This document shows positions 403 to 39,684 of a stretch of 42,771 nucleotides of DNA, piece after piece. Source of the DNA: Lawsonibacter sp. (GTDB lineage Bacteria > Bacillota > Clostridia > Oscillospirales > Oscillospiraceae). The notes beneath the pieces were generated by a model. That model searched no databases and was not told the origin of the DNA. It saw only the letters and a list, made by a program, of their open reading frames with translations. The position numbers and the translations under genes were made by a program. The stretch spans positions 1 through 42,771 of the forward strand of contig JAAWHL010000014.1 in the NCBI GenBank assembly GCA_022795855.1, given 5' to 3'. Numbering within the stretch: position 1 is the first letter of the stretch; each line of letters starts with the position of its first letter.

Positions 403-564
403 AGAGCCTGTTTAATATCTCGAAGTATGCCGAATGGCAGGGAATTTTGCCGCCAGGCAAGGCAAATTTCCGCAGGAACCCCTGGTGGATTCCAAGAAAA
501 TTTCACGCAGTATGGCGGCAAATGGCCCGCCAGCCGGTGTGCTGAGAGATGTTAAACAGGCTCT
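403..564 (+). repeat. Interspersed palindromic repeat, copy A (full length, 162 bp)
   Basis: Full copy with 19-bp ends, AGAGCCTGTTTAATATCTC at 403-421 and its complement (one mismatch) at 546-564. Inside, GGGAATTTTGCCGCCA near the left is mirrored by TATGGCGGCAAATGGCCC near the right, and a central AAATTTCC/AAAATTTC pair continues the palindrome, so nearly the whole unit could fold as one long hairpin. It has no convincing ORF. It lies between prmC and recA, so any prmC-recA transcript would carry it in the recA leader. Confidence 0.9.
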
Positions 565-629
565 AAGGGCTTGTCTGTCCCTGATATTACACGACCAGGC
601 GTCCGTTAAACCGGACTTTTCTTTTTCGC

Positions 630-1493
630 TCAGCTGTTTATGACCCCTTCCACCACGCGCCACACCCCCCGGGTGTCGGCCACGGTCTGGATCCCCTCAA
701 ATCCGCTGCGGGCCATCAGCTCCTCCACCTGGGGCGCCTGCCCCAGGCCCACCTCAAAAATCAGCGCGCCGCCCAGGCGCAGGGCGCTCTTCCACTTGGC
801 GCACACGGCGCGGTAGAAGTCCAGCCCGTCCTCACCCCCGTCCAGGGCCATGTGGGGCTCGTAGTCCCGCACGGACTTATCCAGTCCGGCAATGTCGCCG
901 GTGGGAATGTAGGGGGGGTTGCAGGCAATCACGTCAAAGTCCCACAGCGAGGACCCGGGGGACTCCAACGCGTTGACGCTGAGGCAGGTGACCCGGGCGT
1001 TGAGCTCGTTGCGGCGGACATTCTGCTTGCACAGGCGCAGGGCCGCCTCGGACAGCTCCCCCAGCACCACCCGGCACTCGGGGACCTGAGCGGCCACCGC
1101 CAGGCCCACGCAGCCGCTGCCGGCGCACAGGTCCAGCACCCGTGCGCCCTCGCCCGCCTCTTTGGTCCGCTGGATGGCCCGTTCGGCCAGCACCTCGGTG
1201 TCGGCCCGGGGAATCAGCACGTCGGAGGAGATGTCCAGGGGCAGTCCGTAAAACTCCCACTCGCCCACGATATAGGCCACCGGTTCCCCGGTCAGCCGGC
1301 GCTGAATCAGCTCCTCCACCCGGCGCTCCAGCTCCCCGGAGACGTACAGGGACATGTCCCGGTACAGCTGCTCCCGGCTCTTGTCGGCAGCGTAGCACAG
1401 AATCTCCCGGGCCTCCAGCTGGGCCGCGTCCACGCCCGCCCGCCGCAGACGGGCGCGGGTGTCCAAATACAGGTTGTTGTAGGTGGTGGCCAT
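630..1493 (-). CDS. prmC: Peptide chain release factor N5-glutamine methyltransferase PrmC (HemK)
   Basis: PrmC methylates the glutamine of the GGQ motif in release factors RF1 and RF2, using S-adenosylmethionine. The 287-residue protein has the N-terminal helical release-factor-binding region (1-85), the SAM motif DLCAGSGCVG (121-130) and the catalytic NPPY (192-195), which binds the substrate glutamine. An upstream in-frame extension to 1658 exists, but the ATG at 1491-1493 follows GGAAGGTGAAATT, which decides the start. It lies 56 bases downstream of the DUF1385 gene on the same strand, a common Firmicutes pairing. The prfA gene that often follows prmC is not here; a repeat and recA follow instead. 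Confidence 0.95.
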   Translation of the reverse strand: MATTYNNLYLDTRARLRRAGVDAAQLEAREILCYAADKSREQLYRDMSLYVSGELERRVEELIQRRLTGEPVAYIVGEWEFYGLPLDISSDVLIPRADTEVLAERAIQRTKEAGEGARVLDLCAGSGCVGLAVAAQVPECRVVLGELSEAALRLCKQNVRRNELNARVTCLSVNALESPGSSLWDFDVIACNPPYIPTGDIAGLDKSVRDYEPHMALDGGEDGLDFYRAVCAKWKSALRLGGALIFEVGLGQAPQVEELMARSGFEGIQTVADTRGVWRVVEGVINS

Positions 1494-1549
1494 AATTTCA
1501 CCTTCCTGACGGTCTTTTGTTTTCCTGCCGCTCCCGCGCAGGCGTCCCG

Positions 1550-2527
1550 CTACCAGGCGTCCGCGCCCTTCTCCTCGGGCAGGACCAGCTCCAGGGCCCG
1601 GATCCCCACCTCGATCATGGAATCGTCCGGCTCGAAGGTGGTAAAATTCTGAAGCCACAGCCCCGGGGCCACCAGCACCCGGGTCAGCGGGTTCTCGTGG
1701 CGGCCCGCATAGCGGTTGAACTCATAGCTGACCCCCACGATGGCGGGCAGCATCACCAGATGGGCCAGAAAGCGCCAAATCACGTTGTACACCGGCCAGA
1801 CGGAAAACACCGCCGTGGACACCAGAATGGACACAAAGATGACCACAAACAGAAAGCTGGTGCCGCACCGGGGATGGTGCCGGGGCTGGCGGCGCACGTT
1901 TTCCACGGTCAGGGGCAGGCCGGCCTCGTAGCAGAAGATGGTCTTGTGCTCCGCGCCGTGGTAGGAGAACACCCGGCGCATCTCCCCCATCCGGGAGCAC
2001 AGGGCCAGGTATCCGATAAAGATAGCGATTTTCAAAAGGCTCTCCGCCAGGTTGCGGATGAGCATATTGCCGGGGAACGCCAGGCTGACCAGGCCGCCCA
2101 GGGCGGTGGGCAGCAGAAAGAACAGCCCGATGGACATGGCCAGCCCCAGCACCACCGCCAGGGTGGTAATAAAGGAGGCGGCCTTCTCGCCGCCGAGAGT
2201 CTTTTCCAGCCAGAGGTCAAATTTGGAGGGCTCCTCCTCCTCGTCCTCCGGATAGAACTCCGCCGACCACATCAGGGCCTTGACCCCGTCGGCCATGGAG
2301 GAAATAAAGTTCACCACCCCCCGAATCAGGGGCAGTCCGCAGGCAGGGTGCCGCTCCTTCACCAGACGGAGCTCCTTCTCCTGAATCTCCAGCTCCCCGT
2401 CGGGGCGGCGGACCACCACGGCCTGCTTTTTGGGGCCGCGCATCATGATGCCCTCAATAAGCGCCTGCCCGCCGCACATGGTTTTGAAGTTCCTGTTCCC
2501 GCTGTTTTCGTTTTCCTGGGTCTGCAT
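1550..2527 (-). CDS. DUF1385 integral membrane protein
   Basis: This 325-residue DUF1385 family member has no established biochemical function. The N-terminus carries the family signature GGQALIEGIMMRGP (about 19-32). Hydrophobic helices lie near residues 110-140, 160-180, 220-240 and 245-265, with the conserved YHGAEHKTIFCYE block and the RQPRHHPRCGTSF block between them. The ATG at 2525-2527 is preceded by GAGGAGAACC. It heads a transcription unit with prmC, driven by the promoter at 2571-2599. Family assignment is secure; the role is unknown. Confidence 0.92.
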   Translation of the reverse strand: MQTQENENSGNRNFKTMCGGQALIEGIMMRGPKKQAVVVRRPDGELEIQEKELRLVKERHPACGLPLIRGVVNFISSMADGVKALMWSAEFYPEDEEEEPSKFDLWLEKTLGGEKAASFITTLAVVLGLAMSIGLFFLLPTALGGLVSLAFPGNMLIRNLAESLLKIAIFIGYLALCSRMGEMRRVFSYHGAEHKTIFCYEAGLPLTVENVRRQPRHHPRCGTSFLFVVIFVSILVSTAVFSVWPVYNVIWRFLAHLVMLPAIVGVSYEFNRYAGRHENPLTRVLVAPGLWLQNFTTFEPDDSMIEVGIRALELVLPEEKGADAW

Positions 2528-2570
2528 GTGGGTTCTCCTCTTAAAAATATAAAATGGAATCTCGACCTCT

Positions 2571-2599
2571 ATTGTACCAGCTTGCCCGCCGCTTTGCAA
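2571..2599 (-). promoter_or_regulatory. Sigma-A promoter of DUF1385-prmC
   Basis: On the minus strand TTGCAA (2594-2599), a 17-base spacer and TACAAT (2571-2576), with an extended TGG just before the -10. It lies about 45 bases upstream of the DUF1385 start. Confidence 0.75.
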
Positions 2600-2695
2600 G
2601 GGCCGTCCGGCGTTCCGGCGCGGCCGCCCGCCGAAAATTTTTCTGCGGCCCCGCCGGAGGGGGATTTGCCCGGCGGACGGGCCGCCCCTCCCCTT

Positions 2696-3727
2696 TTATC
2701 CCTCCCGGCGGGCCGCCGGGTCGGCGGGCGCGGCTTCCCACTCCCCCGGCCGCTCCGCCTCCAGACGGAACCCGGGAAAGTACTCCTCCGCGAAGTCCAC
2801 CTTCTCCACCTGGAAGGTGCGCCCGTTCAGGGGCTGGAGGACCCCCGCGTCCGTGGTGAAGGAGAAGCGCAGCTTGTAGGAGTACAGGGCCTGCCCGCGG
2901 CGGCCCAGCCGCCGGTTCTCCCGCTCGCTGCCGTACTTGCCGTCCCCCGCCAGGGGATGGCCGGCGGCGGCGAACTGGGCGCGAATCTGGTGGGTGCGGC
3001 CGGTAATCAGCCGGCACTCCACCAGGGACAGCCCGTCCCTGGTGCACAGGGTGCGGTACTCGGTCACCGCCCGGCGGCAGCCCGGCTCCGGCCGGGCGCG
3101 GACGTAGACCTGCTTTTTGCTCTCATCCTTGAACAGATAGTTCTCCAGCGTCCCTGCGGGCCGGTCCATCCTCCCCCGGATGACGCACAGGTAGTATTTC
3201 TCCAGCTCCCGGTCCTTGATTTTCTGATTCATCACCCGCAGGCCCTCGGCGGTCTTGGCGGCGATGACAATCCCGCCCGTATTCCGGTCGATTCGGTTGC
3301 ACAGGGCGGGGGCGAAGGCGTTCTCCTGATAGGGGGACCACTCCTTTTTCTGGTAGAGATAGGCCTGAATGTGGGTAATCAGGGTGTTGAAGCGCTCGTT
3401 CTCGTCCGGGTGCACCACCATGCCGGGGCGCTTGTCCGCCAGCAGAATGTGCCCGTCCTCGTACAAGACCGTCAGCCTGGGCCGGTAGAGGGCCAGGAAG
3501 GCGTTCTCCGGGGCGGGCCGCTGGAAAAACTCGTCGTTGATGTACAGGTGCAGCACGTCCCCCTCGGCCAGCCGCGCGTCCCGCTTGGCCCCCTTTCCGT
3601 TCACCTTCACCCGCTTCAGGCGGATATACTTCTGGGCCAGGGGGGCGGGCAGAAGGGGCAGGGCTTTGGCCAGCCAGCGGTCCAGCCGCTGCCCGGCGTC
3701 GTTCTTTCCGATGGTGAATTCCTTCAT
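2696..3727 (-). CDS. RluA-family 23S rRNA / tRNA pseudouridine synthase
   Basis: The enzyme isomerises uridine to pseudouridine in structured RNA. The 343-residue protein has an N-terminal S4 RNA-binding domain (about 12-65, with QKYIRLKRVKVNG) and the RluA catalytic core, including NRIDRNTGG with the catalytic aspartate at residue 147. The usual HRLD is NRID here, as seen in a clostridial subgroup. A second core motif, GRTHQIRAQFAAAGHPLAGD, lies near 245-265. The C-terminal tail is short and rich in Pro, Ala and Glu. It is transcribed alone from the promoter at 3752-3781. The exact RNA target cannot be told from sequence; RluC/RluD-like is most likely. Confidence 0.92.
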   Translation of the reverse strand: MKEFTIGKNDAGQRLDRWLAKALPLLPAPLAQKYIRLKRVKVNGKGAKRDARLAEGDVLHLYINDEFFQRPAPENAFLALYRPRLTVLYEDGHILLADKRPGMVVHPDENERFNTLITHIQAYLYQKKEWSPYQENAFAPALCNRIDRNTGGIVIAAKTAEGLRVMNQKIKDRELEKYYLCVIRGRMDRPAGTLENYLFKDESKKQVYVRARPEPGCRRAVTEYRTLCTRDGLSLVECRLITGRTHQIRAQFAAAGHPLAGDGKYGSERENRRLGRRGQALYSYKLRFSFTTDAGVLQPLNGRTFQVEKVDFAEEYFPGFRLEAERPGEWEAAPADPAARREG

Positions 3728-3751
3728 GGCCAGTCCTCCTTGTTCAAGAGG

Positions 3752-3781
3752 ATTTTAACACAGGAGCGGGGCGGTTTTCAA
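3752..3781 (-). promoter_or_regulatory. Promoter of the pseudouridine synthase gene
   Basis: Minus strand TTGAAA (3776-3781), 18 bases, TAAAAT (3752-3757), preceded by TGTGT. It lies 25 bases upstream of the start codon. Confidence 0.6.
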
Positions 3782-3860
3782 GCCCGCCGGGCCGGACCGG
3801 GGCAGAAACAGGCCGGTTGGGCCGGGAAAGAAATATTTTGGGCAAAAACGCAGAAAGTAT

Positions 3861-3889
3861 TTGACAAGCGGCGCTTTATTCTTTATAAT
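3861..3889 (+). promoter_or_regulatory. Consensus sigma-A promoter of DUF177-rpmF
   Basis: TTGACA at 3861-3866, exactly 17 bases, TATAAT at 3884-3889: a perfect consensus. This fits the high expression needed for a ribosomal protein operon. The leader to the DUF177 start is about 40 bases. Confidence 0.9.
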
Positions 3890-3935
3890 ACTCGCTGTAC
3901 CGTGAAGGATTGTCTGTAAGAAACGGAGGGGTTCC

Positions 3936-4427
3936 ATGTATCTGGAGCTGCGGGATATCATCCACGTTCCGGATGCGTCGAAGCCGTTCCAATTCCAGAT
4001 GGATTTATCCGAGATGGAGTTTTACGGGCAGCGGCCGGTCTCCCGGCCGGTGTTCATTGAGGGCCGGGTAACCAACCACGCCGGGGCGCTGGTGCTGGAG
4101 GGGAGCGCAGCCTCCCTGCTGGATCTGCGGTGCGACCGGTGCGGGAAGGCCTTCTCCCGGGAGCAGACCGCCCGGCTGGACTGCCTGCTGGCCGACCGGC
4201 TGGAGGACGAGGACCAGGACGGCATCGTTCTCCTGGAGGGCACTCGGGTAGACCTGGACGAGGTGGCCGGGACGGCCTTCATCCTTGGAATGGATACCAA
4301 AAACCTTTGCTCGGAAGACTGCAGGGGGCTGTGCGGCCGGTGCGGAGCCGACCTGAACGACGGCCCCTGCGGGTGCAGACCCGAAGCGGATCCACGATTG
4401 GCGGCGCTTCTGCGGCCGCCTCAATGA
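3936..4427 (+). CDS. DUF177 (YceD-like) protein upstream of rpmF
   Basis: This 163-residue DUF177/YceD family member is nearly always encoded directly before rpmF. In other bacteria and in plastids the family is linked to 23S rRNA accumulation and large-subunit assembly. Visible features are a CDRCGKAF motif near 64-72 and a Cys-rich C-terminus (CSEDCRGLCGRCGADLN), giving a likely metal-binding site. The ATG follows AACGGAGGGGTTCC. It is co-transcribed with rpmF, 60 bases downstream. Confidence 0.92.
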   Translation: MYLELRDIIHVPDASKPFQFQMDLSEMEFYGQRPVSRPVFIEGRVTNHAGALVLEGSAASLLDLRCDRCGKAFSREQTARLDCLLADRLEDEDQDGIVLLEGTRVDLDEVAGTAFILGMDTKNLCSEDCRGLCGRCGADLNDGPCGCRPEADPRLAALLRPPQ

Positions 4428-4487
4428 GGAGAGCCAAGATCCAAAGCGCGCCCCAGACCGGCGCGCAGACCGAAGGAGGTGTCATCA

Positions 4488-4673
4488 ATGGCGGTTCCTA
4501 AGAGAAAAGTGTCCAAGGCCCGGCGGGATAAGCGCCGCAGCTCCGTGTGGAAGCTGGAGACTCCCGGTATCGTAACCTGCCCCAAGTGCGGCGCTTACCG
4601 GCTTCCCCACCGGATGTGCAAAAATTGCCTGACCTACAACGGCCGTACCTTCGGCCAGGTGGAGGCACAATAA
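4488..4673 (+). CDS. rpmF: 50S ribosomal protein L32
   Basis: This 61-residue basic protein begins [18 protein letters not shown], the L32 signature. It has a zinc ribbon with cysteines at 31, 34, 44 and 47 (CPKC...CKNC), so this is the zinc-binding (C+) form. The ATG at 4488-4490 follows CGAAGGAGGTGTCATCA; a GTG-type start nine bases earlier is possible but would not match L32. It is followed directly by a strong terminator. Confidence 0.98.
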
Positions 4674-4680
4674 CTGCCGG

Positions 4681-4712
4681 AAAAAACCGCTGAAGCGTTC
4701 AGCGGTTTTTTT
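4681..4712 (+). terminator. Rho-independent terminator of rpmF
   Basis: AAAACCGCTGAA, loop GCG, TTCAGCGGTTTT, then further T residues. It lies 7 bases after the rpmF stop. Confidence 0.93.
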
Positions 4713-4743
4713 GCGCCCTTCGGCCCTTTCCCACGCCCCTCTC

Positions 4744-4901
4744 AGAGCCTGTTTAATATCTCGATGCCGAATGGCAGGGAATTTTGCCGCCAGGCAAGGC
4801 AAATTTTCGCAGGAATCCTTGGCGGTTTCCAAGAAAATTTCACGCAGTATGGCGGCAAATGGCCCGCCAGCCGGTGTGCGGAGAGATGTTAAGCAGGCGC
4901 T
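4744..4901 (+). repeat. Interspersed palindromic repeat, copy B (158 bp)
   Basis: Near-identical to copy A by eye, with the same ends (left AGAGCCTGTTTAATATCTC, right GAGATGTTAAGCAGGCGCT). It lacks four bases (AAGT) near the left end, shared as a difference with copy D. Its right end reaches the TGA stop of the response regulator gene on the opposite strand. Confidence 0.9.
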
Positions 4902-5599
4902 CAGGGGGCGCTCTTCCGGTTGGACAGGTAGTACCCCACGCCCCATTTGGTGCGGATGTACTCCGGGTTGGCGGGGTCCAGCTCCAGCTTCTCCCGCAGG
5001 CGGCGGATGTGTACGTCCACCGTGCGGAAGTCCCCGATATACTCATAGCCCCACACCACGTTCAGCAGGTTTTCCCGGCTGTACACCCGGCCCGGGTTGC
5101 GCATCAGCAGCTCCATCAGGTCGAACTCCTTGGCGGTCAGCTCCACCGCCTCGCCCCCCTTCCAGGCGGCGCGCTCGCCGGCGTCCAGCAGAATGTGCCC
5201 GGCCTCCAGCCGGCCGCCGGACTGCTTCTGCACCGCCGCACCCGACCGGCGCAGCAGCGCCCGGACCCGGGCCTTCAGCTCCAGAATGTTGAAGGGCTTG
5301 GTGATGTAATCGTCCGCGCCGCACTCAAAGCCCACAATTTTGTCCGCGTCCTCGCTGCGGGCGGTGAGCATAATCACCGGCACGTTGGAAAACTCCCGGA
5401 TGCGCATACAGGCCTGGAGGCCGTCGATTTTCGGCATCATCAGGTCCAGGATAATAAGGTCAAAGCTGCCCTCCCGGGCCAGTTCCACCGCCTCCTCCCC
5501 GTCGTAGCCGGTAAAAACCTGGTAGCCCTCGTTCTCCAGGTTGAACTTGATTCCCTTGACCAGCACCCGCTCGTCGTCTACCACTAAAATTTTTGCCAT
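4901..5599 (-). CDS. OmpR/PhoB-family two-component response regulator
   Basis: This 232-residue DNA-binding response regulator has a receiver domain (1-118) with the acidic pair D8-D9, phospho-acceptor D52 in LIILDLMMP, T79 and K101. The C-terminal winged helix (about 130-225) has RTVDVHIRRLREKLE as recognition helix and TKWGVGYYL as wing. It resembles the WalR/ResD/PhoP group. No sensor kinase gene is adjacent, so the partner lies outside the window or elsewhere. Its Shine-Dalgarno GAGGAG overlaps the TGA of the ComEA-like gene, so the two are probably translationally coupled. Confidence 0.95.
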   Translation of the reverse strand: MAKILVVDDERVLVKGIKFNLENEGYQVFTGYDGEEAVELAREGSFDLIILDLMMPKIDGLQACMRIREFSNVPVIMLTARSEDADKIVGFECGADDYITKPFNILELKARVRALLRRSGAAVQKQSGGRLEAGHILLDAGERAAWKGGEAVELTAKEFDLMELLMRNPGRVYSRENLLNVVWGYEYIGDFRTVDVHIRRLREKLELDPANPEYIRTKWGVGYYLSNRKSAP

Positions 5600-7733: not shown

Positions 7734-7736
7734 CGG

Positions 7737-12527: not shown

Positions 12528-12765
12528 AGTGCCTGTTTAACATCTCTTATCCCAAAGGGAAGAGGATCAAACAGTATTTTTCCGCAAAACTTTGTTTTGC
12601 GTCAGGCCGTGTTTGAAAATCGGCCGCAGGGCCAAAGGCGGGGCGCTTTGCCGCCGGACGAAACCGATTTTTTGCGGGAATTCCGGATATATTCCAGGAA
12701 AATCAGGGAATTATAGCGGCAGAGGGCCCGCAGTCCGGGCATACGGACCATTTTCAAACAGACGA
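12528..12765 (+). repeat. Interspersed repeat, copy F: partial left end plus a diverged full-length copy
   Basis: A left end AGTGCCTGTTTAACATCTC sits at 12528-12546. A second, diverged full copy spans about 12604-12765 with ends GTGTTTGAAAATCGG and CCATTTTCAAACAGAC. Its core aligns by eye with copy A (TTTGCCGCC, GCGGGAATTCC, TATTCCAGGAAAATC, TAGCGGCAGAGGGCCCGC). Between the two a small hairpin CGCAAAACTTTGTTTTGCG is visible. The block separates spoVAD from spoVAE, genes normally adjacent. Confidence 0.75.
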
Positions 12766-13534: not shown

Positions 13535-13557
13535 TTTGAGGTTATGAATACAGGTTC
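13535..13557 (+). repeat. Isolated right end of the repeat family (type 2 end), copy G
   Basis: TTTGAGGTTATGAATACAGG and the following TTC match the ends seen at 33710-33737 and, inverted, at 39614-39640. Only the end is recognisable. The rest of 13505-13669 is GC-rich and otherwise featureless. Confidence 0.5.
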
Positions 13558-14516: not shown

Positions 14517-14537
14517 GATTTGCCGGGGCCGGTTCTC

Positions 14538-14694
14538 AGAGCCTGTTTAATATCTCGAAGTATGCCGGCAGGGAATTTTGCCGCCAGGCAAGGCAAATTT
14601 CCGCAGGAATCCTTGGCGGCTTCCAAGGAAATTTCACGCAGTATGGCGGCAGAAGGCCCGCCAGCCCTGTGCCGGGAGATGTTAAACAGGCTCT
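14538..14694 (+). repeat. Interspersed palindromic repeat, copy C (157 bp)
   Basis: Near-identical to copies A and B, with ends AGAGCCTGTTTAATATCTC and GAGATGTTAAACAGGCTCT (the latter at 14676-14694). The right end touches the TGA of the glycosyltransferase-CsaB gene on the minus strand. Confidence 0.9.
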
Positions 14695-16910
14695 CAGCGC
14701 TTTGCCTCTCCCCGCTCCAGCAGCTCCAGCAGCAGCCGCTCGTTCTCCCGGGCGGCCTGCGCCAGGGCGGCGGATTTTTCCTGAAGGCGGCGGCGGCACA
14801 GGGAGTATTGGGCCATCAGCCGGTCGGCCTGGCCGATGGCGGCGGCGCTGTCAAAGCTGCATACATCCCCGGCGGAGGGCATATCCAGCTCCCGCAGGTA
14901 GCTGGATACCTTGGGGTCGTAGACCAGCCCCAGGGTGGGCACCGACATCCGTGCGGCGAAAATCAGGGTGTGCAGGCGCATGGCCAGGCACAGCTTGCTC
15001 CGGCCCAGCACGCCCATCAGTTCCTGGGGGGTGCTGGGGACGTCCAGCAGGCTGGAGGGCTCCTCCATGGCCTGCCGGATTTGCCCGGCCGCCTCCCGGT
15101 CCTTGTGGGGCTGCATCAGCAGGAAGAGAATTTCCAGGCCGTAGGTCCGGCGCAGGTGGTCGCACAGCCGGGCCAGACCGGCGGGGAAGTCCCCGGTGCC
15201 CGGCCACTCCCGCACGGAGACGGCGGCAAAGGGGGTGTTCTCCTCCAGCCCGGCCGCCCGGAGCAGACGGGCGCTGCGCCCGGGCGGGGCGCACTCCAGG
15301 CGGAACACCGGGTCGGCGGTGACGTGCAGGTCCTCCCGGGCCACCCCCATCTCCCGCAGCTCCTGCGCGGAGCTGCGGTCCCGCAGCGTAACCACAGCGG
15401 CCCGCTCCACCGCCCGCTTCACCCGGCGGCGGTTGCCCGGCTTGTCCACCGGGCCAATGCCGTTGGCATAGAGCATCACCGGCTTGCCCAGCAGCTGGGC
15501 GCAGCGCATGATGGACAGGTAGTATAGGATGGACCGGGTGGAGGTGCGGTCCTGGAGCAGGCTCCCGCCGCCGGAAATCAGCGCGTCGCAGCCCCAAAGG
15601 GCCCGGAACACCGTGGGGAAGCGGAAGCGGGACAGGGCCTTCATGCCGTAGCACCGGGCGGTCTGCTGGGGGTCGTTGGACAGGACGGTGACCTCCACCT
15701 CGCCGCTGGCCTCCCGGATGGACTGGTGGATGGACTGGAGGATGGCGTCGTCCCCGGCGTTGGAAAAGCCGTAGTACCCGCTCATAACCACATGGTATTT
15801 CCTCCGGCGCACCCGCTCGTACATCTCCAGGCTGTCCTGGGTCATACGCTCCAGGGAGTAGCGCTCCTGCACCACCTCCCGGCCGTACTCCCCCAGCTGC
15901 CGCCGCTGCTCCGGGCTCAGCCGGGCGGCGGCCAGCAGGTCCTCCAGCAGCCGGTCTGGGGTGGCCGGCGGGTCGCTGCGGCAGCAGAAGTTGGTGTCCA
16001 CCGCCTTGTCCAGCAGCCTTGGGACAAACAGCCCGGTGTGGCCCTGCGCCCCCGACAGAACCGCCGGCCGGCCGGCGGACATGGCCTCCAGCGCCGCCCG
16101 GGAGACCCCCGCGAACAGGTCACAGGCGGCCAGCAGCTCACTGATATCGGTGCGCGGTCCGGTCATCACGGCGCACGCGCGGCCCAGCCGGCGGTTGACC
16201 TCCTCCGCCTGAGCGGCCAGCTCCGGAAAATCCTCGCCGCCCCCCACAATCAGCAGCCGCACGCCGGGGAGCTCCCGGTCCAGCCGCGGGGCCAGCTCCA
16301 GCAGCTGGCGGGCGGTCACGCTGGTAGCCGGGGTCAGGCGGCTGACGTGGCCGATGACCAGCCCGTCTCCCAGCCCCAGCTCCTCCCGCACCCCGGCCCC
16401 CGAGACGGCAGGGGAGAATTTTTGGGTGTCGATGCCGTTGATGGTCAGGGTGATGCGCTGGGGCGGAATGCCGTACTTCCGCTCCAGATAGTCCCGGATG
16501 TCCTCGGAGACGGTCAGGGTATGCTCCCCCCAGTTGGACAGCAGCTTCAGCGCGCCGCTGACCTGGTACACCCCGTGGCAGGTGGTGACAAAGGGGAAAT
16601 GCAGCCGTTTTTGCAGCAGTCCGCACAGAAAGGCCGGGATTCGGGCGTGGGCATGGACCACGTCGGGCCGCTCCTCCCGGATGACGCGGCTGAGAATCCG
16701 CAGGGAGCGCAGCATATCCCGGGCGCTGCGGCGGTGCATGGGGGCGGGGAAGTGGCGGATGCCGGCGGCGGCAATCTCCGGCACGTACACCCCGCCGTTG
16801 GAGACCACCACCACCTGATGCCCCCGGAGCCGGAGCTGCTTGGACAGCTCCACAATGTGGGTCTCCGCCCCGCCGATGTCCAGCCCCATGGTGGCCATCA
16901 GAATTTTCAT
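14694..16910 (-). CDS. Fusion of a GT4 glycosyltransferase and a CsaB-type polysaccharide pyruvyl transferase
   Basis: 738 residues. Residues 1-368 are a GT-B glycosyltransferase (MGLDIGGAETHIVELSKQL at 8-26; HVSRLTPATSVTARQLL; SRAALEAMSAGRPAV near 270-284 as the sugar-nucleotide motif). Residues 371-710 are a CsaB/polysaccharide pyruvyl transferase (YYGFSNAGDDAILQSIH; ISGGGSLLQDRTS; MRLHTLIFA), which adds a ketal-pyruvate to a wall polymer. That modification anchors SLH-domain proteins in other Firmicutes. CsaB is normally a separate protein of about 360 residues, so this is a true two-domain fusion with a linker of only a few residues. The start follows GGGGGCGGAAC. It is the last gene of the surface-polymer operon. 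Confidence 0.92.
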   Translation of the reverse strand: MKILMATMGLDIGGAETHIVELSKQLRLRGHQVVVVSNGGVYVPEIAAAGIRHFPAPMHRRSARDMLRSLRILSRVIREERPDVVHAHARIPAFLCGLLQKRLHFPFVTTCHGVYQVSGALKLLSNWGEHTLTVSEDIRDYLERKYGIPPQRITLTINGIDTQKFSPAVSGAGVREELGLGDGLVIGHVSRLTPATSVTARQLLELAPRLDRELPGVRLLIVGGGEDFPELAAQAEEVNRRLGRACAVMTGPRTDISELLAACDLFAGVSRAALEAMSAGRPAVLSGAQGHTGLFVPRLLDKAVDTNFCCRSDPPATPDRLLEDLLAAARLSPEQRRQLGEYGREVVQERYSLERMTQDSLEMYERVRRRKYHVVMSGYYGFSNAGDDAILQSIHQSIREASGEVEVTVLSNDPQQTARCYGMKALSRFRFPTVFRALWGCDALISGGGSLLQDRTSTRSILYYLSIMRCAQLLGKPVMLYANGIGPVDKPGNRRRVKRAVERAAVVTLRDRSSAQELREMGVAREDLHVTADPVFRLECAPPGRSARLLRAAGLEENTPFAAVSVREWPGTGDFPAGLARLCDHLRRTYGLEILFLLMQPHKDREAAGQIRQAMEEPSSLLDVPSTPQELMGVLGRSKLCLAMRLHTLIFAARMSVPTLGLVYDPKVSSYLRELDMPSAGDVCSFDSAAAIGQADRLMAQYSLCRRRLQEKSAALAQAARENERLLLELLERGEAKR

Positions 16911-16971
16911 GTTCCGCCCCCTCTCCCGAAAGCCTGTTCCGCGCATTGAGGGGCGCCCGGCCCCTCCCGCG

Positions 16972-23559: not shown

Positions 23560-23592
23560 TACGGGAACTTGGAAGAGGCGCGTCCGTCCCTT

Positions 23593-23673
23593 AGCGCCTG
23601 TTTAATATCTCGATGCCGAATGGCAGGGAATTTTGCCGCCAGCCGGTGTGCTGAGTGATGTTGAACAGGCTCT
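23593..23673 (+). repeat. Interspersed palindromic repeat, copy D with internal deletion (81 bp)
   Basis: Both ends are intact, but the middle is missing: the sequence jumps from GGGAATTTTGCCGCCAG to CCGGTGTGCTGAG. In full copies the two break points share the 7-mer CCGCCAG, so this looks like deletion between short direct repeats. The right end touches the TAA stop of mntP. Confidence 0.85.
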
Positions 23674-24236
23674 TATCCGCCGAGAAGCCCCAGGTGCTCC
23701 AGCAGGATTTTGCTCCCCATCGCAATCAGAACCGCCCCGCCGGCCAGCTGGGCCCGGCTGCCGAAGCGCTCCCCCAGCCGTGCGCCCAGCCCCACCCCGG
23801 CCCAGCACAGCCCGAAGGTGGCGGCGCCGATAAAGGCCACCGCGGGGAGGATGTCCACCTGGAGAAAGGCAAAGGTCACCCCCACCGCCAGCGCGTCGAT
23901 GCTGGTGGCTACGGCCAGCGGAAGCATGGCGCGGGGCTGGAAGGAGCAGTCCAGGCACTCCCCGCCGCCGCCGGCCTCCCGAATCATGTTGGCCCCGATG
24001 ACCCCCAGCAGCACAAAGGCAATCCAGTGGTCCACGCTGGCGATAATCCCCTGAAAGCGCACCCCCAGCAGATAGCCGGCCAGGGGCATCAGCATCTGAA
24101 AGCCGCCGAAATAGACCCCCGCCGTCAGGCAGTGCCCTGCCCTGGCCCGTCCTACCGACAGCCCCTTGCACACCGATACCGCGAAGGCATCCATAGACAG
24201 CCCCACCGCAATGACAAACAGCTCCCACAGACCCAT
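23673..24236 (-). CDS. mntP: Manganese efflux pump MntP
   Basis: MntP exports Mn2+ to protect against manganese overload. The 187-residue protein has six helices in two related halves: GLSMDAFAVSVCKGL (about 11-25) and VATSIDALAVGVTFAFL (about 113-129), carrying the paired Asp motifs characteristic of the family. Between them is a Cys-containing loop (GGGGECLDCSFQ). The ATG at 24234-24236 follows GAAGGAGGAGCGGAAGTT; the upstream in-frame extension lies in the riboswitch leader. A yybP-ykoY riboswitch controls it directly, which supports the function strongly. Confidence 0.96.
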   Translation of the reverse strand: MGLWELFVIAVGLSMDAFAVSVCKGLSVGRARAGHCLTAGVYFGGFQMLMPLAGYLLGVRFQGIIASVDHWIAFVLLGVIGANMIREAGGGGECLDCSFQPRAMLPLAVATSIDALAVGVTFAFLQVDILPAVAFIGAATFGLCWAGVGLGARLGERFGSRAQLAGGAVLIAMGSKILLEHLGLLGG

Positions 24237-24273
24237 AACTTCCGCTCCTCCTTCTCCGGCAGTCCCGCACAGC

Positions 24274-24308
24274 AAAAAAGACCTACCTGTCCCGCCGACA
24301 GGTAAGTC
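24274..24308 (-). terminator. Riboswitch-controlled terminator upstream of mntP
   Basis: Minus strand GACTTACCTGTC, loop GGCGG, GACAGGTAGGTC, then TTTTTT. The 5' arm is also the 3' strand of riboswitch helix P1, so the two structures exclude each other. Confidence 0.9.
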
Positions 24309-25492: not shown

Positions 25493-25654
25493 AGCGCCTG
25501 TTTAACGTCCTCCCGTCACACCGGCCGGCGGTCCTTTTGCCGCCATTCCGGGTGGAATCTCCTTGGAGTCCGCCAAGGGTTCCTGGGAAAATCCGCCTTG
25601 TCCGGCGGAAAAATCCCCTGCGTTCGGCACACTTCGGGCGATTAAACAGGCTCT
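25493..25654 (-). repeat. Interspersed palindromic repeat, copy E, inverted and diverged (162 bp)
   Basis: Ends AGCGCCTGTTTAA and TTAAACAGGCTCT. The interior matches the reverse complement of copy A: CACACCGGC, CCTTTTGCCGCCAT, AGTCCGCCAAGGGTTCCT, GGCGGAAAAATCCCCTGC, TTCGGCA and ACTTCG, with many substitutions. It lies 3' of the plus-strand DUF3870 gene. Confidence 0.8.
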
Positions 25655-33679: not shown

Positions 33680-33737
33680 ACGTGCGGCGGCAAAAGGCCC
33701 GCCCAGGCGTGCGTTTGAGGTTGTGAATGCAGGCTCT
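33680..33737 (+). repeat. Right half of the interspersed repeat, copy H (type 2 end)
   Basis: GCGGCGGCAAAAGGCCCGCC matches the right inner block of copy A (GGCGGCAAATGGCCCGCC), followed by GTTTGAGGTTGTGAATGCAGG and CTCT. The outer end touches the TAA stop of the symporter gene; the inner end lies 9 bases before the amidohydrolase ATG. Confidence 0.65.
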
Positions 33738-35311
33738 TAATCCGCCTGCTCCCCCAGGGCCTCGCTCTGGCGGACCGTGACCCTGCGCTCGTAGCAGGAG
33801 AAGGCACCGTCCACCAGCCGCCCGTCCGGCCTGGCGGTGAACAGGCTGACCGCGGGAACAATGACCAGCCCCGCAATCATGCAGAAAGCGCCGCAGTTGA
33901 TGGGGGACTGGATCAGCGCGGGGAAGCTGCTGCGCACAAAGATATTGGCCACCATCACCGCCGTGGAGAACAGGAAGCTGGCCCAGCAGGCGGCTTGGGT
34001 CGTCCTCTTCCAGTACAGGCCGTAGAGGAAGGGGGCCAGGAAAGCGCCTGCCAGCGCGCCCCAGCTTACGCCCATCAGCTGGGCGATGAAGGTGACGTTC
34101 TGCCTGTACTGGACAATGGCCAGCACCACGGAGACGGCGATGAACACCACAATCAGGCCCTGCATGACGCGCACCTGCTTTTTCTCGCCCATGCCCTTGA
34201 GGACGGTATCCTTCAGGAAGTCCAGGGTCAGGGTGGAGCTGGAGGCCAGCACCAGCGAGCTCAGGGTGGACATGGAGGCGGAAAGCACCAGAATCACCAC
34301 AATGGCGATGAGGATATCGGGCAGGCCGGAGAGCATGGTGGGAACCACCGCGTCAAAACCGCCGGCGGGCGTGCCGGTCCCGGAGGGGTCCAGCTGCGCG
34401 GAGAACAGCCGCCCGAAGCCGCCCAGGAAGTAGCAGCCGCCGGATACCACCAGGGCGAAGACGGTGGAAATAATCATGCCCTTGTTGATGGCGCTTTCGC
34501 TTTTGATGGCGTAAAATTTCTGCACCATCTGGGGCAGGCCCCAGGTGCCCAGAGAGGTCAGAATGACCACCCCCAGCAGGTTGACGGGGTCGGGGCCGAA
34601 GAAGGAGGCAAATACGCCCGGCGCGCCGGCCACAGGGCCGGCCCCGGCCTCGGCGGGAATCCGGGCCAGCCCCTCCAGCGCGGCCAGGAACCCGCCCTGG
34701 CTGTGGAGCACTGCGGCGATGACGGCGCAGATGCCGAAAAGCATAATCACGCCCTGAATAAAATCGTTGATGGCGGTGGCCATATACCCCCCGGTGATGA
34801 CGTACACGCCGGTGAGGACGGCCATGACCACCACGCAGACGGTGTAGTCGATGTCAAAGGCCATGCCGAACAGGCGGCTCAGCCCGTTGTAGAGGCTGGC
34901 GGTGTAGGGGATCAGGAAGACGAAGATAATCGCGGAGGCGGCCAGCTTCAAAGACCGGGATCCGAAGCGCTTGCCGAAGAATTCGGGCATGGTGGCGCTG
35001 TTCAGGTGCTGGGTCATGATGCGGGTGCGCCGGCCCAGCACGGCCCAGGCCAGCAGAGAGCCCAGAACGGCGTTCCCGATGCCCGCCCAGGTGGCGGCGA
35101 CGCCGTATTTCCAGCCGAATTGGCCGGCGTAGCCCACAAAGACCACGGCGGAGAAATAGGAGGTGCCGTACGCGAAGGCGGTCAGCCAGGGGCCCACGGA
35201 GCGCCCGCCCAGCACAAAGCCGCTGACGTCTGTGGCGTGGCGGCGGCAGTACAGGCCGATGCCCACCATGACGCTGAAGAAAACCAGCAGCAAGACGACT
35301 TTGATTGCCAT
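33737..35311 (-). CDS. Sodium:solute symporter (SSS family)
   Basis: This 524-residue transporter has about 13 helices. Family motifs are visible: FVLGGRSVGPWLTAFAYGTSYFSAVVFVGYAGQFGWKYG (about 32-70), the RIMTQHLNSATMPEFFGKRF region, ITGGYMATAINDFIQGVIMLFG (about 160-182), and SASMSTLSSLVLASSSTLTLDF (about 365-386, Na+ site serines). Such proteins take up organic acids, amino acids or vitamins with Na+. The start (35309-35311) follows GGAAAGGGATTGGTTTTT. It is expressed from a promoter overlapped by a palindrome (35469-35506) and followed by the amidohydrolase. Confidence 0.93.
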   Translation of the reverse strand: MAIKVVLLLVFFSVMVGIGLYCRRHATDVSGFVLGGRSVGPWLTAFAYGTSYFSAVVFVGYAGQFGWKYGVAATWAGIGNAVLGSLLAWAVLGRRTRIMTQHLNSATMPEFFGKRFGSRSLKLAASAIIFVFLIPYTASLYNGLSRLFGMAFDIDYTVCVVVMAVLTGVYVITGGYMATAINDFIQGVIMLFGICAVIAAVLHSQGGFLAALEGLARIPAEAGAGPVAGAPGVFASFFGPDPVNLLGVVILTSLGTWGLPQMVQKFYAIKSESAINKGMIISTVFALVVSGGCYFLGGFGRLFSAQLDPSGTGTPAGGFDAVVPTMLSGLPDILIAIVVILVLSASMSTLSSLVLASSSTLTLDFLKDTVLKGMGEKKQVRVMQGLIVVFIAVSVVLAIVQYRQNVTFIAQLMGVSWGALAGAFLAPFLYGLYWKRTTQAACWASFLFSTAVMVANIFVRSSFPALIQSPINCGAFCMIAGLVIVPAVSLFTARPDGRLVDGAFSCYERRVTVRQSEALGEQAD

Positions 35312-35341
35312 AAAAACCAATCCCTTTCCTGCCGTTCCTTC

Positions 35342-35443
35342 AGAGCCTGCCCAGCATCCCTCAGCGCACCGGCCCGGCGGGCCTTTTGCCGCCGTACCGC
35401 GTTCCATTTCCCGGAATACGCTCGGTTCCGAATACAGGTTCTT
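35342..35443 (-). repeat. Diverged partial repeat, copy J (hybrid ends)
   Basis: It starts AGAGCCTGCCCAGCATC (type 1 end) and finishes GAATACAGGTTCTT (type 2 end). The interior ACCGGCCCGGCGGGCC and TTTTGCCGCCGTACCGCGTT corresponds to the inverted core. It lies in the leader of the sodium:solute symporter. Confidence 0.55.
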
Positions 35444-36791: not shown

Positions 36792-36824
36792 GATAAATCT
36801 CCTCCGGCAGAACTGTTTTTTTCG

Positions 36825-36853: not shown

Positions 36854-36922
36854 GAGACGCGGCGCTTTTTGGAGAAACCGGAAAACAGGAGAACATGTGC
36901 AAAGTATGGGTCAATCTCCAGC

Positions 36923-36951
36923 TTGAAAAGCGGGGGGAGTTCCGATATAAT
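36923..36951 (+). promoter_or_regulatory. Promoter of coaX-rsmI
   Basis: TTGAAA (36923-36928), 17 bases, TATAAT (36946-36951). A short palindrome GGCCGGAGCAGCTCCGGCC (36971-36989) sits in the 5' leader and may shield or modulate the transcript. Confidence 0.8.
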
Positions 36952-37009
36952 TTAGCGGAACACAGGAAACGGCCGGAGCAGCTCCGGCCGGAATCACGAG
37001 GTGAAGACC

Positions 37010-37807
37010 ATGCTTTTAGCGATTGACATCGGCAATACCAACATTGTCATCGGCTGCATCCACCGGGACAAGATCATGTTCGAGGCCCGCATCGCCACCG
37101 ACCGCACCCGGACCTCCGACCAGTACGGCGTGGAAATCAAAAACATGCTGGAGGCCTACGGCGCCCGGGTGGGAGACATCTGCGACTGCATCATCTCATC
37201 GGTGGTGCCGCCGGTGTTCAACTCCGTATGTACCGGCGTAATTAAGGTAATCGGCAAGCAGCCCATTGTGGTGGGGCCGGGCCTGAAGACCGGGCTGAAC
37301 ATCCAGATGGAGGTCCCCTCCCAGGTGGGCAGCGACCGTATCGTCATCGCCGTGGCCGCGCTGGCGGAGTACCGCCCCCCTCTGATTCTCATGGACCTGG
37401 GCACCGCCACCACCATCGAGGTGGTGGCGCCGGGCAGCGTCTACCTGGGCGGCGTGATTATCCCCGGCGTGAAGGTGTCGGTAGACGCCCTGACCAGCCG
37501 GGCGGCCCAGCTGCCGGGCATCAGCCTGGACCGGCCCAGGCAGGTCATCGGAAAAAACACGGTGGACTGTATGCGCAGCGGCATCATGTACGGCACCGCC
37601 GCCATGATTGACGGCATGGTGGAGCGCATGGAGGCGGAGCTGGGCCGCAGCTGCACCCTGGTGGCCACCGGCGGAATGGCCCAGTTCATTACCCCGCTGT
37701 GCCGGCGGGAGATTATCCTGGAGAAGGACCTGCTGCTGAAGGGGCTGAACGTGATTTATAAAAAGAACCGGCGGGCGGCAGATCGCCCCTGCGCGGGGCA
37801 GGGGTGA
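37010..37807 (+). CDS. coaX: Type III pantothenate kinase
   Basis: Phosphorylates pantothenate with ATP, the first step of CoA synthesis; type III enzymes are insensitive to CoA feedback. The 265-residue protein begins MLLAIDIGNTNIVIG (phosphate loop), and contains VGSDRIVIAVAAL (about 106-118), LILMDLGTATTIEVV (about 126-140, catalytic Asp), GGVIIPGVKVSVDAL and VATGGMAQFI, all typical. The ATG at 37010 follows GAGGTGAAGACC; a GTG nine bases earlier falls within that ribosome site. Its stop codon overlaps a GTG of the rsmI frame. Confidence 0.96.
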   Translation: MLLAIDIGNTNIVIGCIHRDKIMFEARIATDRTRTSDQYGVEIKNMLEAYGARVGDICDCIISSVVPPVFNSVCTGVIKVIGKQPIVVGPGLKTGLNIQMEVPSQVGSDRIVIAVAALAEYRPPLILMDLGTATTIEVVAPGSVYLGGVIIPGVKVSVDALTSRAAQLPGISLDRPRQVIGKNTVDCMRSGIMYGTAAMIDGMVERMEAELGRSCTLVATGGMAQFITPLCRREIILEKDLLLKGLNVIYKKNRRAADRPCAGQG

Positions 37808-37812
37808 GGGAC

Positions 37813-38646
37813 ATGCCCGGACGGCTGTATCTGGTCCCCACCCCCATCGGAAACCTGGGGGACATCTCCCAGCGGATGGCCCGGACCCTGGCGCAGGCGG
37901 ATTTCATCGCCGCGGAGGACACCCGGGTGACGGTGAAGCTGCTCAACCACCTGGGGCTGAAAAAGAGCATGGTGGCCTACCACCGCCACAACACCCAGGC
38001 AGGCGGCCGGGCGGTGCTGGAGCGTCTGCTGGCGGGGGAGAGCTGCGCCCTGGTCACCGACGCGGGGACGCCCGCCGTCTCCGACCCCGGAGAGGAGCTG
38101 GTGGCCCTGTGCGCCCAAAACGGGGTGACGGTGGAGTGCATTCCAGGCCCCTGCGCCCTGGTCACCGCCCTGGCGGTATCGGGACAGCCCACGGGGCGCT
38201 TCACCTTTGAGGGCTTTTTGGCCATGAACAAGAAAAACCGCCGCGCCCACCTGGAGTCCCTGAAGGGGGAGGAGCGGACCATGATTTTCTACGAGGCGCC
38301 CCATAAGCTGAGCGCCACCCTGGAGGACCTGGCCCGGACCTTCGGCCCGGAGCGGCCGGTCACTCTGTGCCGGGAGCTGACCAAGCTGCATGAGGAAATC
38401 CGGCGCACCACCTTGGGGGAGGCGGCGGAGCGCTGCCGCGCCGAGACGCCCAAGGGGGAGTTTGTGCTGGTGGTCCGGGGCGCCCCGCCCCGGGCGGAGG
38501 CGCCCCCCAGCATGGAGGACGCGCTGGAGCAGGTAGAGCGGCTGCAGAGCGGGGGGGCCTCCCTGAAGGACGCGGTGCGGCAGACGGCAAAGGAGCTGGG
38601 CCTGCCCCGCAGCGAGCTGTACGGCCGGGCCGTCCGCCGGGCGTGA
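37813..38646 (+). CDS. rsmI: 16S rRNA (cytidine(1402)-2'-O)-methyltransferase
   Basis: RsmI methylates the 2'-hydroxyl of C1402 in the 16S rRNA decoding centre, using SAM. The 277-residue tetrapyrrole-methylase-fold protein shows LYLVPTPIGNLGDIS (about 5-19), AAEDTRVTVKLLNH, LVTDAGTPAVSDPG (about 79-92), FEGFL and FYEAPHKL; a short helical C-terminal domain ends the protein. ATG 37813 is chosen (GAGGGAC before it); the GTG at 37804 overlapping the coaX stop would add three residues. Co-transcribed with coaX, tightly spaced. Confidence 0.95.
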   Translation: MPGRLYLVPTPIGNLGDISQRMARTLAQADFIAAEDTRVTVKLLNHLGLKKSMVAYHRHNTQAGGRAVLERLLAGESCALVTDAGTPAVSDPGEELVALCAQNGVTVECIPGPCALVTALAVSGQPTGRFTFEGFLAMNKKNRRAHLESLKGEERTMIFYEAPHKLSATLEDLARTFGPERPVTLCRELTKLHEEIRRTTLGEAAERCRAETPKGEFVLVVRGAPPRAEAPPSMEDALEQVERLQSGGASLKDAVRQTAKELGLPRSELYGRAVRRA

Positions 38647-38676
38647 CGCTCCCTGTTTTCCCCGCGCCGGGAAGTA

Positions 38677-38706
38677 TTGACATCGGGGGGCCGGCTCGTT
38701 TATAAT
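38677..38706 (+). promoter_or_regulatory. Promoter of the PilZ protein gene
   Basis: TTGACA (38677-38682), 18 bases, TATAAT (38701-38706). Confidence 0.82.
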
Positions 38707-38747
38707 AATCTCAAACTGCTGATGAAGCATGAAAAGGCGGGATAGGC

Positions 38748-39461
38748 ATGAGCTTTTTTTCCTCCCTGTTTTCAGGGCGTTCGGATGATTCGGAGGACGA
38801 ATTCGATCTGGCGGAGGAGTTTCCCGAGCTGTATAACGGCATGACACTGGACCTGATCACCAAGGAGGGGGCCCATCTGCTCTCCGGCAGAATCACCTCC
38901 TTCACCGAGACGGCGATGACCCTGGAGCGTCTGCCCGGCTGCCTGTCCTTTCCCGTGTTCAGCATCGGAACACGGGTCTGGATCCGCGGCTATAACCAGG
39001 GGATGGTCCCCTTCAGCATGACGGCCATGGTACAGGAGTCCTCCCGCATTGTGTGCAAGCTGCGGGATCTGAAGGCGATCCCCTTCTCGGAGCAGCGGCT
39101 GAATTTCCGTCTGCCCACCCAGCTCCCGGTCTCCCTGTACTACCAGCACGACGAGCACCTGGAAAACCCGGAGGCCTGTATGCTGGTGGACATCAGCACC
39201 GGCGGCGCCTGCATTGAGTCGGAGTACCTCCACGCCGAGGACGAGGTCCTGCGCCTGAAGGTGAAGCTGGAGGACTACAAGCCCATGGAGTTTTTGGGGC
39301 AGATTATCCGGGTAACAGAACCCAGCCCCGGGCATTTCCGCTACGGCTTCCTCTTTGCCCAGCTGCGGGAGGATGAGCTGACCGAGCTGACCAAAACCCT
39401 GTACAACCTCCAGGTGGGCAACCGCCGGGAGTGGCGGCGGAGCGACGTAGGCCACTGGTGA
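38748..39461 (+). CDS. PilZ-domain (cyclic di-GMP binding) protein, YcgR-like
   Basis: 237 residues. The N-terminal half (about 30-105) resembles the YcgR-N/PilZN flagellar-brake type beta domain. The C-terminal half (about 114-225) is a PilZ domain with both c-di-GMP motifs, R117-L-N-F-R121 and D148-I-S-T-G-G153. Both binding motifs are intact, so the protein should sense c-di-GMP. The N-terminal 25 residues are Ser/Asp-rich and probably disordered. Single gene between its own promoter and a strong terminator; no flagellar gene is nearby to name the output. Confidence 0.9.
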   Translation: MSFFSSLFSGRSDDSEDEFDLAEEFPELYNGMTLDLITKEGAHLLSGRITSFTETAMTLERLPGCLSFPVFSIGTRVWIRGYNQGMVPFSMTAMVQESSRIVCKLRDLKAIPFSEQRLNFRLPTQLPVSLYYQHDEHLENPEACMLVDISTGGACIESEYLHAEDEVLRLKVKLEDYKPMEFLGQIIRVTEPSPGHFRYGFLFAQLREDELTELTKTLYNLQVGNRREWRRSDVGHW

Positions 39462-39505
39462 GCACTGCCGCCTCCGCTCCCGCGCCGCCTGTTTCCCGCC
39501 CCTCC

Positions 39506-39542
39506 CCGGGGGCCGAGCGTTGGCTCGGCCCCCGGTTTTTTA
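39506..39542 (+). terminator. Rho-independent terminator of the PilZ gene
   Basis: CCGGGGGCCGAGC, short loop, GCTCGGCCCCCGG, TTTTTTAT: a perfect 13-bp stem. Confidence 0.95.
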
Positions 39543-39547
39543 TGCCC

Positions 39548-39684
39548 TCAGCGCCTGCTCCAGGGCCTGCTTGAACATTGCCCGTCCGCCCAACCGGCGG
39601 GCCGGGAGGTGTTGGAACCTGTATTCACAGCCTCAAATGCGCACCTGGACGAGGGATTTTTCCGCCGGACAAGGCGCAGGCGCT
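39548..39684 (+). repeat. Diverged repeat material, copy I
   Basis: Two pieces can be read. AGCGCCTGCTCC and GGCCTGCTTGAACATTG at 39548-39581 resemble type 1 left ends. GAACCTGTATTCACAGCC at 39615-39632 (type 2 end) is followed by GAGGGATTTTTCCGCCGGAC and AAGGCG, which match the left core of copy A (AGGGAATTTTGCCGCCAGGC). Its outer right end GCGCAGGCGCT touches the TAA stop of the LysR gene. Confidence 0.55.

What the first reader, a model, noticed from the sequence alone, without database searches (positions are those of the whole stretch)
403..39684. Interspersed, near-palindromic ~160-bp repeat family with 19-bp terminal inverted repeats
About ten loci in 42 kb carry the same architecture: ends AGAGCCTGTTTAATATCTC and its complement, with nested inner inverted repeats that let most of the unit fold on itself. 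Young copies are at 403-564, 4744-4901, 14538-14694 and 23593-23673. Older ones are at 12528-12765, 25493-25654, 33680-33737, 35342-35443, 39548-39684 and 13535-13557. There is no coding capacity. The density and the mixture of ages imply long-term proliferation in this lineage, like a MITE or a REP/BIME-type element, with mobilisation in trans. I do not recognise it as a named family.
Basis: partly seen in the sequence, partly recalled or inferred. Interest (0 to 1): 0.72.

Follow-up and report, generated by a model that had tools for sequence, protein, structure and literature searches.

The report
160-bp gene-less jumping DNA hairpins
The repeats are short, gene-less jumping DNA elements, mostly 160 letters long and able to fold into one long hairpin, that seem to borrow the enzyme of a known kind of bacterial transposon; relatives occur in gut bacteria and in a streptococcal phage, and why the whole fold is conserved is unexplained.

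Summary
The repeat family is real and mobile. In own-genome stretches fetched there are 92 places. Identical 3-bp flanks occur in 71 of 97 elements (shuffled mean 32, maximum 46); two nested insertions restore exactly 160 bp; 28 of 29 orthologous sites are empty. TNA duplication and such ends are IS5-family, IS1031-group traits (PMC12016507, passage). In another genus an IS end identical at 17/17 bases runs into an IS5-type transposase C-terminus; no intact source IS was found in the host. Four 'older' window loci carry a second end type. Unusual: 66 of 98 grouped TSD-matched elements are 158-163 bp, across genera and in a Streptococcus suis phage, and the whole hairpin covaries (203 double-change cells, 59 shuffled), with a modest G.T-over-A.C excess on one strand. 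Selection on a folded strand is inference. New variant of a known kind.

The parts
404..563 (+). type A element, 160 bp, full length; TSD TAA at 401-403 and 564-566
   Evidence: 171 bits
4745..4900 (+). type A element, 156 bp; TSD TCA at 4742-4744 and 4901-4903; the right TSD copy is the TGA stop codon of the ORF 4901-5599 (-)
14539..14693 (+). type A element, 155 bp; TSD TCA at 14536-14538 and 14694-14696; the right TSD copy is the TGA stop of the 750-aa ORF 14694-16946 (-); no element-like end within 350 bp after the same gene in 28 of 29 same-genus orthologues
23594..23672 (+). half-length (79-bp) type A element, probably an internal deletion; TSD TTA at 23591-23593 and 23673-23675; the right copy is the TAA stop of the ORF 23673-24275 (-)
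25494..25653 (-). older type A element, 160 bp, flanks TCA/TTG no longer identical
   Evidence: 121 bits
12529..12765 (+). composite: type A left end at 12529, followed by a separate hairpin element at about 12609-12763 with TTTGAAAAT-type inner ends
   Evidence: I7; E 2.7e-8
33680..33736 (-). fragment with a type C end (33719-33736); the outer TTA at 33737-33739 is the stop codon of the ORF 33737-35407 (-)
35343..35441 (-). decayed A/C hybrid, C end at 35424-35441; covariance-model score not significant (E 0.77)
39549..39683 (+). decayed composite with a type C end at 39615-39632; not found by the type A covariance model
   Evidence: (I10, I25)
13540..13557 (-). isolated type C end, exact match to GAACCTGTATTCAYARCC

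Best explanation
[quoted passage not shown] A DDE transposase of the IS5 family, IS1031 group, made by an IS with the same ends, is thought to bind the ~17-bp ends, cut the element out or copy it, and insert it at TNA, duplicating those 3 bp. Shown: ends, TNA duplications, nested and tandem insertions, empty orthologous sites at one locus, and in a related genus an IS end of the same sequence joined to an IS5-type transposase C-terminus. Inferred: that this transposase moves these elements, and that the host had such an IS and lost it, or it lies in unassembled DNA. Surviving copies sit mostly at gene 3' ends, some exactly on stop codons, where the duplicated TNA supplies the stop codon again.
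For: TIR statistics (99 matches with at most 1 mismatch against 4 for the reversed pattern). TSD: 20 of 28 paired own-genome copies have identical 3-bp flanks; over all loci 71 of 97 elements of 150-170 bp, shuffled mean 31.9 and maximum 46 in 2000 shuffles, 180 of 194 flanks of TNA form. Two nested insertions give back exactly 160 bp when the inner element and one TSD are removed. 15 tandem junctions share a single TNA. 28 of 29 orthologous gene ends lack an element. Partner IS: in G449 four places have TNA-GAGCCTGTTTAAWATCTT at the 3' end of the same IS type, three of them 17/17 with the left end of copy A; in C128 it runs into a transposase C-terminus about 63% identical to that of Lactiplantibacillus IS5-family transposases. 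Of three such plasmid IS fetched, two show 849 bp, TSD TAA and ends GAACCTGTTTAAAATCT with at most one change at the other end. An IS of 1657 bp in same-genus genome G053 has perfect 12-bp ends GAGCCTGTTCAA, TSD TAA and an IS5-family transposase. Literature: ISLrh, IS1031 subgroup, ends GAACCTGTCTAGTATCT, TNA, 3-bp repeat (PMC12016507, passage). Context: 24 convergent, 37 tandem, 4 divergent of 65 classed places.
Against: No intact IS with these ends was found in the host genome (93% complete, 127 contigs); its one two-ORF PF01609 transposase (C13) has no such ends. In G449 the IS is seen only as one end, at contig ends or apparently truncated. With the four IS sequences compared, the MITEs share essentially the terminal ~17 bp (338 of 421 weak BLAST hits); the 83 other hits are 11-31 bp with best E 0.002, so it is not a simple deletion derivative of one. 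P0001 found nothing in 291 genomes drawn across the class (no positive control). Only 20 of 64 same-genus genomes match copy A and 12 of 400 family genomes hold the exact end pattern, so distribution is patchy. 26 of 97 elements lack identical flanks. Transposition was not observed.
Confidence: 0.87

Rival explanations
1. Same MITE, but the ~160-bp hairpin itself is under selection as a folded single strand (RNA or ssDNA) of one orientation, so that length and pairing are kept while sequence drifts; transposition, stability or host tolerance would depend on the fold.
For: 66 of 98 grouped TSD-matched elements are 158-163 bp, in several genera and in a S. suis phage. 42 of 55 pairs show double changes; 203 double-change cells against 58.6 (sd 6.7) shuffled and 48-94 when slid. 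With a strand-symmetric pairing, parsimony counts 106 Watson-Crick to G.T but 68 to A.C changes (p 0.005); G.T exceeds A.C in 21 against 7 clusters below 80% identity (p 0.013).
Against: At a 70% cluster cut the asymmetry is 8 to 4 clusters, not significant; singleton types lean the other way (A.C 18, G.T 9 on the RNAalifold structure; 7 to 3 on the shared pairs); split by mutation class only one of two is below 0.05. 119 changes go to other mismatches. Palindromes can be self-correcting in replication (recalled), giving covariation without function. Orientation relative to tandem genes is 24 opposite, 13 same, which does not favour the wobble strand in host transcripts. No Rfam family matches.
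Confidence: 0.3
2. REP/BIME-type palindromes spread by a RAYT (tyrosine) transposase.
For: Palindromic, mostly intergenic, many copies.
Against: Terminal inverted repeats, 3-bp TNA duplication and a length of 160 bp are not REP features (definition recalled); the IS with the same end encodes an IS5-type DDE transposase. No RAYT search was run.
Confidence: 0.02
3. Conserved cis-regulatory or leader RNA, or terminators, fixed at orthologous genes.
For: Strong fold with covariation; concentration at gene 3' ends.
Against: The copy after the 750-aa gene is missing in 28 of 29 same-genus orthologues; nested and tandem insertions with TSDs.
Confidence: 0.03

Closest known systems
IS1031 group of the IS5 family (e.g. 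ISLrh; Lactiplantibacillus plasmid IS)
   Same: TNA target, 3-bp duplication; ISLrh ends GAACCTGTCTAGTATCT (PMC12016507, passage) and L703 ends GAACCTGTTTAAAATCT against GAGCCTGTTTAATATCT here
   Different: Those encode a transposase and are about 850 bp; the repeats here encode none and share essentially the terminal ~17 bp
MITEAba12 (Moraxellaceae)
   Same: Non-autonomous, near-constant length (111-114 bp), TIRs shared with a resident IS (PMC6382973, passages)
   Different: 9-bp duplication, ISAba12 parent; described as highly conserved, whereas length and fold here persist at about 63% mean identity among clusters
BOX and RUP of pneumococcus
   Same: Small, strongly paired, mobile, over-represented between convergent genes (PMC3049150, passages)
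   Different: Other lengths (RUP about 107 bp, BOX 67-637 bp); sequences were not compared here
Tourist/PIF-Harbinger-type elements of eukaryotes
   Same: PIF/Harbinger: 3-bp TWA duplication and an IS5-related superfamily (PMC4482050, passages); Tourist recalled
   Different: Eukaryotic; no sequence comparison was made

Membership tests
MITE | short (<500 bp), no transposase gene | tested here: met
   mostly 160 bp; longest stop-free frame 46-54 codons in elements of 159-164 bp; size criterion from PMC10969869 (passage)
MITE | terminal inverted repeats | tested here: met
MITE | target-site duplication | tested here: met
   71 of 97 identical 3-bp flanks; nested insertions
MITE | ends match an autonomous IS | tested here: met
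   17/17 with one end of the G449 IS, in another genus; the other end of that IS was not seen
MITE | autonomous partner resident in the same genome | tested here: inconclusive
   only IS5-type fragments in G000, one with a type B end; genome 93% complete and fragmented
MITE | transposition observed | not testable with these tools
   none
IS5 family, IS1031 group | TNA target with 3-bp direct repeat | tested here: met
   180 of 194 flanks TNA; group feature from PMC12016507
IS5 family, IS1031 group | encodes an IS5-family transposase | tested here: not met
   no room for such an ORF in 160 bp; hence a dependant of that group, not a member
REP/BIME | short palindromic units without TIR/TSD (recalled) | tested here: not met
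REP/BIME | RAYT gene in the genome | not tested
Rfam families | match at or above the gathering score | tested here: not met
   0 matches in the whole window; two chance-level hits, outside the elements, for 300-5000 at E up to 0.5

The most novel reading that the evidence does not exclude
A Bacillota-wide superfamily of ~160-bp elements with at least three exchangeable end types in which the fixed length and the fold of the whole hairpin, as a single strand of one orientation, are the selected features: the element is a structured RNA/ssDNA parasite that uses IS1031-group transposases, not a decayed IS.
Probability: 0.25. Interest if true: 0.8.

Novelty: new variant of a known kind. Interest (0 to 1): 0.55.

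Why it matters
It gives a MITE superfamily with a named candidate enzyme group, exact boundaries and target, and natural nested and empty sites, so trans-mobilisation can be tested directly. The near-constant 160-bp length and full-length covariation across genera make it possible to ask whether a MITE's fold, and not only its ends, is selected. The copies also break short-read assemblies (seven contig ends of this genome inspected stop inside one), and in several cases the duplicated TNA serves as the stop codon of a gene.

Tried and rejected
Deletion-derivative origin from a known IS: not supported by the four IS sequences compared. IS427-like IS5 elements common in the family (ends GGCTTGTTTGAAAAAT, CTAG/TA flanks): not the partner; the name IS427 is recalled. 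Transposase genes near elements: in G046 and G022 the element and the gene look separate; the one in G060 was not followed up. Intact partner IS in viral contigs and across the class: none. Copy A against phages and plasmids by distant blastn: no match; the L431 element: no plasmid match, one phage. Open reading frames: 21 of 30 clusters have a stop-free frame against 12.7 in a hairpin-preserving control, but the open frame differs between elements and TA depletion accounts for most of it; 160+3 is not a multiple of 3. Avoidance of TNA inside the element: largely the same TA depletion, TCA is not clearly depleted. RNAalifold-based G.T counts are biased towards G.U by construction, so the strand-symmetric count was used; split by mutation class it gives 49:34 (p 0.12) and 52:32 (p 0.04). 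Stop-codon targeting: 27 of 122 ends lie on the stop of an open frame of at least 100 codons against 85 of 1296 control TNA sites, but with intergenic TNA sites as control 7 of 18 against 3.3 expected (p 0.015; only 18 of 92 places qualified), so availability explains much of it. The first ortholog listing mis-framed many loci and was replaced. Literature: 8 searches; six papers seen as passages only, none read whole. The search for the end sequences listed 7 papers, judged by title and abstract start, none opened. I saw no description of this family, which says nothing about papers not held.
Full report
WHAT WAS CHECKED. Reading the flanks shows that the repeated unit starts at G, not A: GAGCCTGTTTAAYATCTC ... 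GAGATRTTAAACAGGCTC, and that the base outside belongs to a TNA trinucleotide, repeated on both sides in intact copies. Five window copies are this type A element (404-563, 4745-4900, 14539-14693, 23594-23672, 25494-25653; covariance model). The locus at 12529-12765 is an A-type end followed by another hairpin element. The loci at 13540, 33719, 35424 and 39615 carry a second end type, GAACCTGTATTCA (4 matches, none expected).

COPIES IN THE GENOME. The window is the whole of contig C47 of a 2.5-Mb, 127-contig genome. BLAST with copy A scored 40 of 153 first-look candidates and listed 60 matches, some of them the two strands of one place; the 12-base end with up to one mismatch is found 99 times against 4 for the reversed pattern. 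In 221 kb of own-genome stretches taken around these places, 92 distinct element places of all types were found, so the copy number is a lower bound. Seven contigs end 93-98 bp inside an element. Of 64 same-genus genomes, 20 match copy A.

MOBILITY. Of 28 paired copies in the own genome 20 have identical 3-bp flanks (one spurious 1356-bp pairing left out). Over all loci fetched by then, 71 of 97 elements of 150-170 bp have identical flanks (shuffled mean 31.9, maximum 46), and 180 of 194 flanks are TNA. In contig C69 a type B element sits inside a type A element, and in L204 a type C element inside a type A one; removing the inner element and one TSD leaves exactly 160 bp in both. Fifteen junctions consist of two elements sharing one TNA. 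The copy at 14539-14693 sits on the stop codon of a 750-aa gene; loci were made for 29 of the 60 other same-genus genomes with a match, and 28 of these 29 have no element-like end within 350 bp of the stop (in one of the 28 only 263 bp were available), while one has a possible end 112 bp away. So these are insertions, not a conserved leader.

THE ENZYME. A TNA target with a 3-bp repeat is stated for the IS1031 group of the IS5 family in PMC12016507 (passage), whose ISLrh ends read GAACCTGTCTAGTATCT. In the own genome only IS5-type fragments were found, one beginning TTA-GAAGCTGTACCAATGG, the type B end. In genome G053 of the genus a 1657-bp IS has perfect 12-bp ends GAGCCTGTTCAA, TSD TAA and a 459-aa transposase scoring 180 bits to NF033580 (IS5 family, cut-off 110). 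In G449, another genus of the family, four places carry the same IS end after a TNA: three read GAGCCTGTTTAATATCTT and one GAGCCTGTTTAAAATCTT. In C128 it runs directly into the C-terminus of a transposase whose stop codon lies in the inverted repeat, 62.5% identical to a Lactiplantibacillus IS transposase and 52% to the G053 one. Of three Lactiplantibacillus IS regions fetched, two show 849 bp, TSD TAA and ends GAACCTGTTTAAAATCT with at most one change; in the third no ends with a matching TSD were found. The MITEs share essentially the terminal ~17 bp with these IS; 83 of 421 weak hits lie elsewhere, 11-31 bp, best E 0.002. Trans-mobilisation is therefore well motivated but inferred.

BREADTH AND LENGTH. 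In the loci scanned (L163-L245), paired elements with TSD were seen in such Clostridia; end matches in records labelled as other phyla or as archaea were not paired there, and may be chance or mis-binned contigs (the covariance model gave L175, labelled Paceibacterota, E 2.3e-6). A type C element of 160 bp with TAA on both sides lies in a Streptococcus suis phage record. Sorting distinct TSD-matched elements by source, 66 of 98 are 158-163 bp (own 16 of 32, genus 9 of 11, family 10 of 13, genome contigs 26 of 37, viral 4 of 4, phage 1 of 1; 2 of 100 fell in no group; only exact duplicates were removed, and some long pairings are composites). Shorter forms of about 80 bp and composites make up much of the rest.

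FOLD. 28 type A clusters at 85% had a mean pairwise identity of 63%. I aligned 26 of them (two, from L017 and L024, were left out) with copy A and two further elements, 29 in all: 91.3% of cells of the consensus hairpin are paired (76.5% shuffled, 39-48% slid), 42 of 55 pairs have a double change, 203 double-change cells against 58.6 (sd 6.7) shuffled. On 61 type A elements with pairs chosen without regard to G.T or A.C, parsimony gives 106 changes from Watson-Crick to G.T, 68 to A.C, 119 to other mismatches and 117 directly to another Watson-Crick pair. Over elements of all types G.T exceeds A.C in 41 against 9 clusters at 90%, 21 against 7 at 80%, 8 against 4 at 70% identity. This is what selection on a folded single strand would give, but relatedness is only partly removed, the smallest set is not significant, singleton types lean the other way, and replication-based correction of palindromes is not excluded. 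I hold it at about one in four.

WHERE COPIES SIT. With a simple hexamer gene caller of my own, 65 of 92 places could be classed: 37 tandem, 24 convergent, 4 divergent; of the other 27, 22 lacked a called gene on one side within the stretch and 5 lay inside called genes. 18 of 85 neighbouring gene 3' ends lie within about 5 bp of an element, against 1 of 45 5' ends. Of 18 clean insertions with both neighbours, 7 use a gene's stop codon as the TNA, 3.3 expected. Tolerance at gene ends may be enough to explain this.

VERDICT. A real MITE superfamily tied to IS1031-group transposases. The mobility class is known; the near-constant length, exchangeable ends and whole-element covariation are the new part.

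Noticed in passing
window 23594-23672; G000:C125:1588-1669; G000:C56:3414-3494: About 80-bp, half-length versions of the element, each with identical 3-bp flanks.
   Followed up: partly
window 12609-12763; G000:C9:8617-8777: A possible fourth end type, (GG)GCCTGTTTGAAAAT, in hybrids with type A ends.
   Followed up: partly
G000:C10, C14, C20, C25, C56, C117, C123 ends: Contigs stop 93-98 bp inside an element, so the assembly breaks at these repeats and copy number is underestimated.
   Followed up: no
G000:C13:6350-6509; G000:C73:18552-18710: Elements of 159-160 bp with a type A end on one side and type B on the other, as if halves had been exchanged.
   Followed up: partly
L147 1414-2386 (G011:C253): IS-like element of 973 bp with related ends GAGCCTATCCTCAAAT / GAACCTATCCGTAAAT and overlapping ORFs that match IS5-type transposase domains.
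   Followed up: no
L734 301-460 (KX077896.1, Streptococcus suis phage): Unannotated 160-bp type C element between two phage genes, TAA on both sides.
   Followed up: partly
the 30 element clusters examined: Excess of stop-free frames and strong depletion of TA dinucleotides inside the elements, apparently beyond the host's own TA depletion.
   Followed up: partly
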